Under the pieces are notes generated by a model. The model worked only from the letters and a program-made list of their open reading frames with translations. It searched no databases and had not been told where the DNA came from. Source: Oscillospiraceae bacterium (lineage in GTDB: Bacteria; Bacillota; Clostridia; Oscillospirales; Acutalibacteraceae). From it: DNA of 64,000 nucleotides. The stretch covers positions 124,001 to 188,000 of the forward strand of contig SVOH01000001.1 in assembly GCA_015066515.1 (NCBI GenBank), given 5' to 3'. Both the position numbers and the translations under genes were made by a program. Positions within the stretch are counted from its first letter, which is position 1, and every line of letters begins with the position of its first letter. Shown piece after piece: positions 60,020 to 63,997 of the stretch.

Positions 60020-61774
60020 TTATTCTTTGTCCTGATTGAGTCTGTGTTTTGAAACGGCTCTTTCGGAATAATTTACATCCCAGTATTTACCGGTTAGATG
60101 ATAGTTTTCAAGGTCACGTGCATCGCCGGTTATTGAATATTCTCTTAAAGCAACCTCTCCGTCAAGGTCGTTAAACAAAGTAGTATGGTAGTATTTGCGT
60201 TCGCGTTCTTCGTTTTCCCCAATCTCCCAGATTGTTCGTCCGTATTTAGAGTGGTCGCCGCCAAGCGATTCAATAATTGTTGCAAACAAATCTTCGTGAC
60301 AGACGGGCGCCAGAGAGGTTTTCATTGTTTCGCCATCGTTTGTACCTGCGGGCTTTACCATCATTATACACGAGGTTGCGTTGTGCAAGTTAAGATCTTG
60401 GCTGGCAGACGAAAAACCGTGATCGGCGGTTATGATAATGGTAGAATTATCAAATGTGCCGGACTTTTTCATTTGTGTTATATATTGCTCTATTAAGAAC
60501 AAACAACCGCGAGTAGCCTCTATCTGAGAAACACCAGGTTTGCTTTGACCGTCTGCACTAATAGACGCTCCCGGATGCGTACCAAACATATGGTACATGC
60601 GAAAGGTTTTATTGAATGTTTTGTTTACCTTTATGCCTTTTTGTTTTATATCGGAGCAAAACCCAACGTCGTCAAATAAAACAGCCTTATTAGGAAGCGC
60701 TTTCATAGAAGCATCATTTACTGACGCAGAGGTGTATTCGAAGTTCTTTTTGAACAAATAAGGCATTCCGCGATATGCAGAAACATTTGCTGCCTGCTTT
60801 ACAAAACTTAAGAAATTCATTGAAGAAAGCGACGAGCTATCGTATGAAAGATGGTTATCTATGTTGTCTAAAACACTTTCACCTATGTATTGCGCTTCGG
60901 TATAAACGCGAATATCGGTACCGAGCTTGTCCATATCTTCGATAAAAGAACTTTTTTCAAATGCTTCATTCACATACTGTGTGTACGGCTTATCAAAATA
61001 ACAAATTTCTCCCGAAAGCAAATATGGTATACTAGGATATGTGCGGCTGTGTGTGGTAGTCATATTTGGGAAATAGGTAAATCCATTAAAGCCGTCGAAC
61101 ATATCGGGATAATCCTCAAGCGCTTGTTCTACCAGTGCTCCGTCGCAAGTGTCAATTATAAAGCAAATAGTGTTTTCGTTTTCGGAAACCTCAAGCTTGC
61201 CTGCATCGGTGAAATAGTTGTTTTTCATATCGTTAACATTTTTGTCGATGTTTAGATACAAGGACAAAAATCCTACAAGCTGCATTGCAACGAGTGCGAT
61301 AGAAATAAAACGCATACCGGTAAAAAGAAGCTTTGATTTTTTGGCTTTTTGCAACATTATCCATAGCGTGAAAATTAAAGCAAAAACAAATATCCAAACA
61401 GCAATATTTGATAAGATAAGTTTTGACGAATATATGTGTTCATCACCGGTGAGAGAGCCCATAGAACCATTGAGCAGAATTGATTGCAAATAGGTACAAA
61501 CTCCCAAAGCAAACACAAAAAGATTTATTGGGCGTAACACTTTTGCCGGCAAAAGACTTACTACGCAGGAAAGTGCGACAGCAACACCAAAAGAAAAAAC
61601 GGAAAGTATAATCGTAGCCGTGGTAGCGGAAAATTTAAATTCGATTATATTTCCTAAAAAAATTTCTAAAGGACTAAAGAAGAAAATTGTAAAAACAGTA
61701 AAGACGAATACCGCCAAAGCAGAAAAAAGCTTTTTTCCGTAAGAAACCTTTTTTGGTTTTATTATCGACAACAC
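60020..61774 (-). CDS. LtaS/MdoB-like sulfatase-fold membrane protein
   Basis: About 584 residues: four to five N-terminal membrane segments (to ~190) and an external alkaline-phosphatase-superfamily domain. Metal ligands can be placed in CFIIDTCDGA, TITADHGFSS-like (IITADHGFSS) and MFGTHPGAS; the nucleophile is the Thr or Ser in THSRTYPSIPYLLSG. Relatives transfer glycerol phosphate from phosphatidylglycerol (LtaS, MdoB) or hydrolyse sulfate/phosphate esters. The start is GTG 61774 or TTG 61771, both well spaced from AGGAG at 61784-61780; a GTG at 61780 overlaps that site. Faces the YidC-fusion gene divergently. Confidence 0.8.
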   Translation of the reverse strand: MLSIIKPKKVSYGKKLFSALAVFVFTVFTIFFFSPLEIFLGNIIEFKFSATTATIILSVFSFGVAVALSCVVSLLPAKVLRPINLFVFALGVCTYLQSILLNGSMGSLTGDEHIYSSKLILSNIAVWIFVFALIFTLWIMLQKAKKSKLLFTGMRFISIALVAMQLVGFLSLYLNIDKNVNDMKNNYFTDAGKLEVSENENTICFIIDTCDGALVEQALEDYPDMFDGFNGFTYFPNMTTTHSRTYPSIPYLLSGEICYFDKPYTQYVNEAFEKSSFIEDMDKLGTDIRVYTEAQYIGESVLDNIDNHLSYDSSSLSSMNFLSFVKQAANVSAYRGMPYLFKKNFEYTSASVNDASMKALPNKAVLFDDVGFCSDIKQKGIKVNKTFNKTFRMYHMFGTHPGASISADGQSKPGVSQIEATRGCLFLIEQYITQMKKSGTFDNSTIIITADHGFSSASQDLNLHNATSCIMMVKPAGTNDGETMKTSLAPVCHEDLFATIIESLGGDHSKYGRTIWEIGENEERERKYYHTTLFNDLDGEVALREYSITGDARDLENYHLTGKYWDVNYSERAVSKHRLNQDKE

Positions 61775-61843
61775 AAACACTCCTTTTATGACAATTATAT
61801 CATTTATTCTATCATATGCCGTCTATTTCGTCAAGAAAGCATA

Positions 61844-61872
61844 TAGACAAAATGCGAGTGTTATGATATAAT
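61844..61872 (+). promoter_or_regulatory. Promoter of the YidC-fusion gene
   Basis: TAGACA and TATAAT with 17 bases between; AAGGAGGG follows 15 bases later, before the ATG at 61901. Confidence 0.7.
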
Positions 61873-61900
61873 CATATGAGAATTTTAAGGAGGGCGCAAA

Positions 61901-63997
61901 ATGGACACGTTAACCGGTTGGATTGCCTTGCCGTTAGGCTTTGTTATGCAGTGGTGTTACAACTTTATACATAACTATGGACTCTCAATTATTGTGTTTA
62001 CGCTGATTACAAAAATAATTATTTTGCCGCTTTCGGTGTGGGTGCAAAAAAACTCTATAAAAATGGTTAAAATGCAGCCCGAACTTAACCGCATAAAAGC
62101 AAAATTTTTTGGTGATGCCGACACAATTGCTGACGAGGAATCAAAGTTATATAAAAAGAACAAGTATAATCCGCTAGCAAGTCTTGTTCCGCTCATAATT
62201 CAGATTGTGCTACTTATGGGCGTGGTAGGTGTAATCTATAATCCGTTTAATTATTTATTTCGTTTACCAGAGGAGCTTATCCTAGCGATAAATGATGTGG
62301 CTTCTAAAATAACGGGTGTTGCTACATATGAATCCTCCATACAATTAGCGGCCGTTGAAAGTATTAAAAATCCCGAATACTATAATCAGTTTGCAGCGCT
62401 TTCATCACAGTTTACAAATGTTGATATGCAGTCTGTGTTGTTGGAAATACAAAATTTTGACCTGATGTTTTTAGGCATAAATTTGTCGCACAACCCGAGT
62501 GTTGTCTGGGGAATTACTGTCGCGGTGCCAGTTGTTGCAGGACTTTCATCCTACCTGCTGAGTATAGCACAAAACAAATCGAACGTGCTTCAGGCGGAGC
62601 AAAGCAAGGTGAGTCAGTGGGGAATGTTAGCGCTGTCGGTAGGCCTTTCGCTTTATTTGGGCTTTTTTGTTCCTGCAGGCATTGCACTTTACTGGGTTGC
62701 AAGCAATCTTTTGGCAATAGTTCAGCTTTATGCTCTTAATGCGGTAATTCCGCCTAAAAAATATGTCGATTACGAGGCTCTTGAGGCTAGCCGTAAAGAA
62801 CTTGCTGCGTTGCAGAGTTTAGGTGGCGATAAAAAGCCTTTTCAAAAGGACGAAAACCACAAACGCGAAAAGGAAGATTACAAGCGCTTTTTCAGTATAA
62901 GAAACAAGCACTTAGTCTTTTATTCCGAGCGTAGCGGTTTTTACAGATATTATGCTGAAATTATAGAGTATTTGCTCAAAAAGACTACGGTTTCAATACA
63001 CTATATCACTAACGATCCAAACGATATTGTGTTTGAAAAGGCAAAAGAGCAGCCCAAGCTTAAGCCTTATTATATAGGTGTTAAAAAAATGATAACCCTT
63101 ATGATGAAGCTTGAAGCTGATATTGTTGTGATGACAACGCCCGATCTTGATAATTACTACATCAAGCGTTCGCTTATGCGAAAGGATATCGAATATATCT
63201 TTGTTCCACACGACCCATCCAGCATGCATATGGGCTTCCGAGAGCATTCGCTCGACAACTTTGATACCGTTTTCTGTACAGGTCCACATATCGCCCAAGA
63301 GGTAAGGGCAAGCGAAAAGGTATACGGCACGAAAGAAAAAACTCTTGTAGAATTTGGTTATCCACTTATTGAACAACTTATAAATTCATACAGCGAAATG
63401 CCCAAGCGTGAGGGCGGTCGAAGACAGATACTTATTGCGCCCTCATGGCAAGAGGACAACCTTCTTGATAGCTGTATCGAAACGTTAATCGACTCGGTTT
63501 ATGGTAGTGAAAATAAAATCATTGTTCGTCCGCACCCCGAATATATGAAGCGATACCGCGAAAAAATGATGATGCTGGTTGAGAAATACAACGATAAAAT
63601 CGGCGATGGACTTCAGTTTGAACTTGATTTTAGTTCAAGCACGTCGGTTTACAGCTCGGATATTCTTGTAACCGATTGGTCGGGTATAGGTATCGAGTTT
63701 GGCTTTGCAACATTAAAGCCTGTTGTGTTTGTTAATACAAAAATCAAGATGGAAAACGAGAATTATGAAAATATAAACATAGTTCCGCAGGAAATACGGC
63801 TTCGCAATGTTTTGGGTGTAGCACTCGAAAAGGACGAGCTTTCGCAAAAGTTTTCCGATACTGTAAACGCGCTGCTTGATGACACTTCTTTTAGAGATAA
63901 GATTGAAAAAGAGAGAGAAAGTTATTTTTATAATCTTGGCACAGGCGGCACCGTTGGCGCAAAATACATTATAAGTAAACTTATTAAAAACAAATAA
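61901..63997 (+). CDS. YidC/Oxa1 insertase fused to a CDP-glycerol glycerophosphotransferase-like domain
   Basis: 698 residues in two parts. Residues ~1-285 are a YidC/Oxa1 core: SIIVFTLITKIIILPLSVWV with Lys38 where most YidCs have Arg, then the coiled cytoplasmic hairpin (KMQPELNRIKAKFF...), and further membrane segments including the last ones near GFFVPAGIALYWVASNLLAI. A charged linker (~300-325) leads into a cytoplasmic TagB/TagF-like domain (~325-695): HLVFYSERSGFYRYYAEII, FVPHDPSSMHMGF (~434), IVRPHPEYMKRY (~541) and VTDWSGIGIEFGFATLKPVV (~590), corresponding to the His and nucleotide-binding motifs of glycerophosphotransferases. It has its own promoter; the coding sequence is complete. 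Confidence 0.85.
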   Translation: MDTLTGWIALPLGFVMQWCYNFIHNYGLSIIVFTLITKIIILPLSVWVQKNSIKMVKMQPELNRIKAKFFGDADTIADEESKLYKKNKYNPLASLVPLIIQIVLLMGVVGVIYNPFNYLFRLPEELILAINDVASKITGVATYESSIQLAAVESIKNPEYYNQFAALSSQFTNVDMQSVLLEIQNFDLMFLGINLSHNPSVVWGITVAVPVVAGLSSYLLSIAQNKSNVLQAEQSKVSQWGMLALSVGLSLYLGFFVPAGIALYWVASNLLAIVQLYALNAVIPPKKYVDYEALEASRKELAALQSLGGDKKPFQKDENHKREKEDYKRFFSIRNKHLVFYSERSGFYRYYAEIIEYLLKKTTVSIHYITNDPNDIVFEKAKEQPKLKPYYIGVKKMITLMMKLEADIVVMTTPDLDNYYIKRSLMRKDIEYIFVPHDPSSMHMGFREHSLDNFDTVFCTGPHIAQEVRASEKVYGTKEKTLVEFGYPLIEQLINSYSEMPKREGGRRQILIAPSWQEDNLLDSCIETLIDSVYGSENKIIVRPHPEYMKRYREKMMMLVEKYNDKIGDGLQFELDFSSSTSVYSSDILVTDWSGIGIEFGFATLKPVVFVNTKIKMENENYENINIVPQEIRLRNVLGVALEKDELSQKFSDTVNALLDDTSFRDKIEKERESYFYNLGTGGTVGAKYIISKLIKNK

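What the first reader, a model, noticed from the sequence alone, without database searches (positions are those of the whole stretch)
61901..63997. A membrane insertase and a teichoic-acid-type polymerase domain in one protein
Seen: one uninterrupted 698-codon frame joins a YidC/Oxa1 core to a domain with TagB/TagF-like motifs (VPHDPS, RPHPEY, TDWSG). Established: YidC inserts membrane proteins; Glyphos_transf enzymes use CDP-glycerol on the inner membrane face and usually bind by amphipathic helices. Inference: here YidC may serve as the membrane anchor or as a dedicated lipid/polymer scaffold for polyglycerol-phosphate synthesis, or the insertase may act on envelope-synthesis proteins. The substitution of Lys38 for the conserved groove arginine supports a specialised copy. 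The LtaS-like gene next door and the LCP, acyltransferase and DUF2142 genes upstream fit a wall-polymer role.
Basis: partly seen in the sequence, partly recalled or inferred. Interest (0 to 1): 0.78.

Follow-up and report, generated by a model that had tools for sequence, protein, structure and literature searches.

The report
YidC fused to a surface-decorating transferase
Some bacteria carry an extra copy of a membrane-protein-inserting machine (YidC) welded to an enzyme that moves small phosphate-like groups, and others weld it to the outward-facing enzyme of the same gene set, which suggests that YidC has been reused as the membrane-crossing part of a cell-surface decorating system.

Summary
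Confirmed: 61901-63997 is one 698-aa frame with a YidC core (PF02096, E 3e-32) and a CDP-alcohol transferase domain (PF04464, E 8e-13), both over cut-off. It recurs uninterrupted in 17 of 394 genomes of the order, six families, so it is no assembly error; a stand-alone YidC sits between rnpA and jag. The fusion belongs to a four-module set: YidC, transferase, an LtaS-like membrane enzyme (SULF) and a small "Y-I/L-D-P" membrane protein (YIDP). In 19 genomes, three of which also have the first form, YidC is fused to SULF instead, beside a YIDP-headed transferase; one genome fuses YIDP to SULF. Neighbours supply cytidylyl-activated groups: phosphonate genes near 12 of 41 loci, choline-kinase-like genes near 10, TagD-like near 2. 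I read it as a surface-decoration system in which YidC links the inner transferase and the outer enzyme, perhaps as a scramblase. Poly-glycerol-phosphate is weakly supported; Lys38 marks nothing, being the commonest residue there in stand-alone YidCs (25 of 45). Function is inferred; both structure models were too poor to use.

The parts
61901..63997 (+). YidC::CDP-alcohol-transferase fusion gene, 698 aa
61901..62800 (+). YidC/Oxa1 core (residues 1-300): five predicted membrane helices, N-out, basic first cytosolic loop, Lys38 at the groove position
   Evidence: PF02096 at 26-280; hydropathy; alignment
62876..63994 (+). Cytosolic PF04464-type transferase domain (residues 326-698); conserved H437, RPHP 543-546, D587, D592, S594
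60020..61780 (-). SULF: LtaS-like alkaline-phosphatase-superfamily membrane enzyme, 586 aa, five predicted helices then a 410-residue domain placed outside; D210, T247, H402, D453, H454 invariant in the 15-row alignment
61781..61900 (.). 120-base divergent intergenic region between SULF and the fusion (regulatory content not tested)

Best explanation
A dedicated, non-housekeeping YidC core is a working part of a transmembrane surface-decoration machine. In the cytosol, a LicC-like nucleotidyltransferase activates a small phospho- or phosphono-alcohol (2-aminoethylphosphonate or phosphocholine where the genes can be assigned). The PF04464 domain, held at the inner face by YidC (or by the YIDP helix in the other architecture), moves that group from the CMP/CDP carrier to a lipid-linked acceptor. 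The YidC groove lets the polar product cross or flip in the membrane. The extracytosolic LtaS-like enzyme then passes the group on to a wall or surface glycan. SHOWN: the module set, its alternative fusions, its gene neighbours; topology by hydropathy only. INFERRED: donor identity, lipid-linked acceptor, flipping by YidC, final acceptor. In the window genome the donor is probably made from an imported group: no PEP mutase was found, and the HTH-LicC homologue is followed by a GlpT/PgtP-like permease and by LicD, TagD and LicD genes.
For: Alternative fusions around one gene set: YidC::GT with separate SULF (20 of 21 loci) and YIDP (20 of 21); YidC::SULF beside a YIDP-headed GT in 20 of 20 loci, within 90 bases in 19; YIDP::SULF in L124. 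Control: 17 other stretches of carrier genomes (292 kb) gave no hit at 1e-5 to these seeds apart from generic ABC ATPases in 6. An extra copy each time: 25 of 25 carrier genomes checked (of 37 known) have exactly one more YidC than they have system loci. Nucleotidyltransferase near 30 of 41 loci, phosphonate genes near 12, choline-kinase-like genes near 10; PEP mutase and phosphonopyruvate decarboxylase over NCBIfam cut-offs in L005, L084, L086, L121, L122, with the AEP transaminase in L005, L121, L122. Topology: five helices, N-out, C-in for the window fusion, so the transferase lies in the cytosol, and SULF's domain outside. E. coli YidC scrambles phospholipids in liposomes (PMC10491306, preprint, passages read).
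Against: No activity is known. L120 (G800) has an A-type transferase in a phosphonate operon with two SULF genes but no YidC in its 15 kb, so YidC is not needed for the chemistry there. Architecture B has Asn/Gln at the groove position in 20 of 20. 11 of 41 loci show no nucleotidyltransferase nearby, L004 and L040 among them. The importer genes score below NCBIfam cut-offs; one choline-kinase-like protein (L098) has a pre-guanitoxin kinase as its best NCBIfam match, below cut-off. Scrambling is general to insertases, so it would not by itself explain a dedicated copy. Wzx-type flippase genes near the window locus and L122 could do the flipping.
Confidence: 0.45

Rival explanations
1. YidC is only a scaffold: a retired insertase fold that docks the transferase, SULF and YIDP together and holds the transferase at the membrane.
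For: B lost the charged groove residue (N 18, Q 2 of 20); the YIDP helix alone anchors the transferase in B; L120 has the enzymes without YidC in the stretch seen.
Against: A keeps Lys/Arg in 21 of 21 and a basic first loop in the window protein, more than an anchor needs; a single helix such as YIDP would do as an anchor.
Confidence: 0.3
2. YidC is a dedicated insertase for the system's own membrane proteins (the polytopic SULF enzyme and the short N-out YIDP protein).
For: Short N-out single-helix proteins are typical YidC clients (recalled); YIDP is close to the fusion in most A loci.
Against: All 25 carriers checked keep a separate YidC that should serve these clients; a fusion to a soluble transferase does not help insertion; in B the insertase would be fused to its client.
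Confidence: 0.15
3. One reading: a TagF-like poly(glycerol phosphate) polymerase that uses YidC as anchor, with an LtaS-type partner, making a teichoic-acid-like polymer.
For: TagD over the NCBIfam cut-off (212 vs 165 bits) 3.7 kb downstream in the window genome; PF04464 family; PDB profile hits Cps3D and TarL.
Against: A TagD-like gene is near only 2 of 41 loci, and the one in L085 does not match the TagD model at E 1e-40; in the window genome TagD lies between two LicD genes that could use CDP-glycerol; the system domains are weak PF04464 members (E 1e-16 to 8e-6; G177's fusion missed at 1e-5), and 11 of 14 other PF04464 domains in the same genomes score better than every one of them.
Confidence: 0.1

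Closest known systems
YidC/Oxa1 insertase family (PF02096)
   Same: Five-helix core, N-out/C-in by hydropathy, basic first loop, Lys/Arg groove residue in architecture A
   Different: Fused to a CDP-alcohol transferase or to an LtaS-like enzyme; an extra copy in all 25 carriers checked; architecture B has Asn/Gln in the groove
TagB/TagF/TarL CDP-polyol transferases (PF04464)
   Same: Sequence family; conserved His, RPHP and D-x-S residues
   Different: Divergent members; sit with phosphonate or choline-kinase-like genes more often than with TagD; membrane held by YidC or by the YIDP helix
LtaS / EptA-type membrane phosphotransferases (alkaline phosphatase superfamily)
   Same: Five helices plus an outer domain; Asp, Thr, His, Asp-His positions; LtaS is the best PDB profile hit, narrowly
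   Different: Relatives are only 14-28% identical to the window's protein; fused to YidC in architecture B; substrate unknown
Pnt phosphonyl tailoring (CMP-AEP, PntC; Rice et al. 2019, PMC6697681)
   Same: Several loci carry PEP mutase, phosphonopyruvate decarboxylase, AEP transaminase and a nucleotidyltransferase
   Different: A find in the main text of that paper gave no YidC, insertase, sulfatase, glycerophosphotransferase or CDP-glycerol, and one LicD; no PEP mutase found in the window genome
lic1 phosphocholine decoration (LicABCD; names recalled)
   Same: Choline-kinase-like, EamA-permease and nucleotidyltransferase genes beside several architecture-B loci
   Different: LicD near only 4 of 41 loci, with a PF04464 transferase in its place

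Membership tests
YidC/Oxa1 (PF02096) | Profile score over curated cut-off | tested here: met
   112 bits vs 35
YidC/Oxa1 (PF02096) | Five-helix core, N-out, C-in, basic first cytosolic loop | tested here: met
   Hydropathy of the window protein: five helices; first cytosolic loop 45 aa with 10 Lys/Arg. The same crude cut-off finds only four in the L005 fusion and in the genome's own stand-alone YidC
YidC/Oxa1 (PF02096) | Positive residue in the groove | tested here: met
   Lys38; K/R in 21 of 21 fusions, but N/Q in 20 of 20 YidC::SULF proteins and N in 11 of 45 stand-alone YidCs
YidC/Oxa1 (PF02096) | Insertase or scramblase activity | not testable with these tools
   Needs purified protein
CDP-glycerol glycerophosphotransferases (PF04464) | Profile score over curated cut-off | tested here: met
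   48.5 bits vs 22.1
CDP-glycerol glycerophosphotransferases (PF04464) | Conserved His, RPHP, D-x-S residues | tested here: met
   Invariant in 15 of 15; that they are catalytic in TagF is recalled
CDP-glycerol glycerophosphotransferases (PF04464) | Uses CDP-glycerol | not testable with these tools
   Neighbourhood points elsewhere: TagD-like gene near 2 of 41 loci
LtaS-type lipoteichoic acid synthase (neighbour SULF) | PF00884 over cut-off for the window protein | tested here: not met
   18.7 vs 25 bits; L004 also fails (22.4); L005, L039, L040, L124 pass
LtaS-type lipoteichoic acid synthase (neighbour SULF) | Five helices plus metal/nucleophile residues | tested here: met
   D210, T247, H402, D453, H454 invariant in the 15-row alignment; best PDB profile hit LtaS; the match to LtaS residue roles is recalled
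Pnt aminoethylphosphonate pathway (window genome) | PEP mutase in the genome | tested here: not met
   No TIGR02320 match at E 0.01 in a 98% complete genome

The most novel reading that the evidence does not exclude
A YidC-family insertase fold has been turned into a dedicated lipid or head-group scramblase, the membrane-crossing middle step of a three-enzyme relay that puts aminoethylphosphonate or phosphocholine on the surface of Bacillota, and it has been fused to the inner enzyme in one architecture and to the outer enzyme in another.
Probability: 0.35. Interest if true: 0.9.

Novelty: new variant of a known kind. Interest (0 to 1): 0.73.

Why it matters
YidC is known as a protein insertase that also scrambles lipids in vitro; I know of no pathway that uses the scrambling (recalled, not searched in full). 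Here a spare YidC is tied physically to the inner enzyme of one surface-group pathway in some genomes and to its outer enzyme in others, which makes the question whether YidC scrambling has a biological use directly testable. The step by which activated aminoethylphosphonate or phosphocholine gets across the membrane of these bacteria also gains a candidate, together with a small uncharacterised protein (YIDP).

Tried and rejected
Assembly or frameshift artefact: rejected, fusions recur in independent genomes. Lys38 as special: rejected. Independent recruitment of YidC in the two architectures: the free tree separates them, but an AU test on 71 of the 86 rows (15 A, 11 B, 45 stand-alone) does not reject one clade (p 0.711), so left open. 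AlphaFold models of the fusion (mean pLDDT 53) and of SULF (44), four sequences each, were too poor; no fold search was run. ABC-transporter ATPases as evidence for AEP import: rejected as generic, 6 of 17 control stretches have one; I counted only the phnS2-like binding protein and the PhnU2-like permease, both below NCBIfam cut-offs (the permease was tested in L078 only). Upstream LCP, acyltransferase and DUF2142 genes as part of the system: no sign of conservation in the stretches fetched. Limits of the neighbourhood counts: phmmer at 1e-3 with seeds taken partly from the same loci, so those loci match themselves; the control is shown at 1e-5; stretches differ in length and some end at contig ends; three further fusion genomes (G860, G867, G904) were not included. 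Papers (PMC open licences only): searches (4 of 4 listed; 1 of 1; 12 of 27 listed; 12 of 37 listed) showed no paper on a YidC fused to or encoded with a CDP-alcohol transferase; subscription papers were not covered. One search led nowhere.

Full report
WHAT IS THERE. The frame 61901-63997 (+) encodes 698 residues without a stop after a good ribosome-binding site. Residues 26-280 match the YidC core PF02096 (112 bits, cut-off 35) and residues 332-612 match PF04464 (48.5 bits, cut-off 22.1). Hydropathy gives five helices, an N-terminal tail with no Lys/Arg and a 45-residue basic first loop, so N-out and C-in: the transferase faces the cytosol (the same crude cut-off finds only four helices in the L005 fusion and in the genome's own stand-alone YidC). 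The genome holds a second, stand-alone YidC between genes that match Ribonuclease_P and Jag_N, the usual housekeeping place (recalled), and no other PF04464 domain at E 0.01.

NOT AN ARTEFACT. The fusion was found in three named metagenome-assembled genomes (Ruminococcaceae UBA2719, 65% identical; two Lachnospiraceae, 45-46%). Among 36 same-genus relatives none has a full-length match, but another same-genus species in the order draw does (G215). The distribution is wide and patchy.

A FOUR-MODULE SYSTEM. I compared gene neighbourhoods of 41 loci. Architecture A (21 loci, the window's included): YidC::transferase fusion; an SULF gene within 5 kb in 20 of 21 (not found in L070; weak in L082); a small protein with a Y-I/L-D-P motif, one helix and a basic tail (YIDP) in 20 of 21 (not found in L075; L080's copy; 4.3 kb away in L084; fused to SULF in L124). 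In the window genome YIDP starts 17 bases after the fusion's stop, at what would be window 64015-64224, just beyond the window end. Three YIDP proteins matched no Pfam family at cut-off. Architecture B (20 loci in 19 genomes): a YidC::SULF protein (877-984 residues; L090 is cut by its contig end) next to a transferase that begins with YIDPGTGSM and one helix, 20 of 20, within 90 bases in 19 and 5.6 kb away in L121. In 394 genomes of the order B is in 16; three of these also have A (G177, G214, G375). The remaining three B genomes are G014, G674 and G744. So the modules are linked by fusion in four pairings: YidC::GT, YidC::SULF, YIDP::GT, YIDP::SULF. As a control, 17 unrelated stretches (292 kb) of carrier genomes gave no hit at 1e-5 to any seed except generic ABC ATPases in six.

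A SPARE YidC. In 25 of 25 carrier genomes checked (of 37 known) the number of YidC genes equals the number of system loci plus one. In 16 of the 25 there is no PF04464 domain outside the system at E 1e-5. In the other nine there are 14 such domains, 11 of which score better (E 3e-24 to 1e-102) than every system domain (E 1e-16 to 8e-6; the fusion of G177 was not picked up), so the fused domain is a divergent branch. The sequence profile of 15 system transferases hits TagF-like Cps3D (E 6e-7) and TarL (E 3e-5) among solved structures.

WHAT IT PROBABLY MOVES. A LicC-like or related nucleotidyltransferase is near 13 of 21 A and 17 of 20 B loci (L092; in L097 only a 55-residue piece at the edge of the stretch). 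Twelve of 41 loci carry phosphonate genes: synthesis with the AEP transaminase in L005, L006, L121 and L122; PEP mutase and phosphonopyruvate decarboxylase, without that transaminase found, in L084 and L086; an AEP-type importer in L072, L074, L078, L080 and L099; a binding-protein fragment in L088. The synthesis genes pass NCBIfam cut-offs in the loci tested, L005, L084, L086, L121 and L122; the importer genes are best hits below the cut-offs. Ten loci, all B, have a choline-kinase-like gene, often with EamA (LicB-like) and LicC-like genes; the Pfam choline/ethanolamine kinase cut-off is passed in the three tested, L085, L087 and L093, while the NCBIfam best hit of L098's is a pre-guanitoxin kinase below its cut-off, so choline is likely but not certain. 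A TagD-like gene is near 2 loci: the window genome's passes the cut-off, L085's does not match that model at E 1e-40. LicD is near 4. The nucleotidyltransferase most like the window's occurs in 12 loci, 11 with an N-terminal extension (helix-turn-helix by Pfam in the three tested: window genome, L073, L076), L123 without; 8 of the 12 have phosphonate supply genes, one as a fragment. No PEP mutase was found in the window genome, but its HTH-LicC gene is followed by an MFS permease whose best NCBIfam matches, below cut-off, are PgtP and GlpT; a permease related to GlpT, AepP, imports AEP in Pseudomonas putida (PMC8316502, passages read). TagD and two LicD genes follow, so the window locus may handle two donors. 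Which transferase uses which donor is not settled.

THE OUTER ENZYME. The window's SULF has five predicted helices and a 410-residue domain placed outside. D210, T247, H402, D453 and H454 are invariant in the 15-row alignment that includes both architectures. Its profile hits S. aureus LtaS best (E 1.4e-10), narrowly ahead of a sulfatase (E 7.8e-10), then further sulfatases, phosphonate monoester hydrolases and MCR-1. That LtaS and MCR-1 use lipid head groups as donors outside the membrane is established knowledge, recalled.

MECHANISM. The parts form a line through the membrane: cytosolic activation, cytosolic transfer, YidC in the bilayer, extracytosolic phosphotransfer. YidC is fused to the step before it in A and to the step after it in B, which is what one expects of the element between them. 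E. coli YidC scrambles phospholipids in liposomes and all tested Oxa1 insertases do so in silico (PMC10491306, preprint, passages read), so a path for a polar lipid head is plausible. This is inference. A counter-example, L120, has transferase, phosphonate genes and two SULF genes without YidC in the 15 kb seen. Groove residue: A has K 20, R 1; B has N 18, Q 2; stand-alone YidCs have K 25, N 11, R 9. The rnpA/jag-linked YidC of the window genome has Asn, so Lys38 says nothing about specialisation.

EVOLUTION. In the tree each architecture's YidC is one group (support 100), and A does not join B in the free tree (86 rows, 289 columns). In a reduced set of 71 rows, holding A and B together is not rejected (AU p 0.711), so one or two recruitments cannot be told apart.

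VERDICT. Observation confirmed; envelope role supported by neighbourhood; glycerol-phosphate specificity weak; Lys38 argument wrong. The wider finding, a spare YidC alternately fused to the inner and outer enzymes of one small-group decoration pathway, showed no precedent in the listings of searches.

Noticed in passing
L037:2015-2224 (window genome, just after the window's end): Small Y-I/L-D-P membrane protein with no Pfam family at cut-off, a recurrent partner in 20 of 21 YidC::transferase loci and the N-terminal segment of the stand-alone transferases.
   Followed up: partly
L039:5876-7696: 606-aa fusion of a LicC-like nucleotidyltransferase and a class I aminotransferase next to an ornithine-cyclodeaminase-like gene, upstream of a YidC::SULF locus; substrate unknown.
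   Followed up: no
L086:13083-15092: 669-aa protein joining a nucleotidyltransferase, a cytidylyltransferase-like domain and a PEP mutase in one chain.
   Followed up: no
L120:4693-13723: Phosphonate operon with a stand-alone A-type transferase and two sulfatase-fold genes, without YidC in the stretch seen.
   Followed up: partly
L085:4542-6371: 609-aa protein joining a helix-turn-helix, a nucleotidyltransferase and a choline-kinase-like domain, beside a YidC::SULF gene.
   Followed up: no
L038:2-1378 (contig C23 of the window genome): Collagen-like G-x-y repeat protein beside the rnpA-YidC-jag region (seen by eye).
   Followed up: no
L076, L078, L080, L081, L124: A signal-peptidase-I-like (S26) gene lies within 3 kb of the fusion in 5 of 21 architecture-A loci; it may process YIDP.
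   Followed up: no
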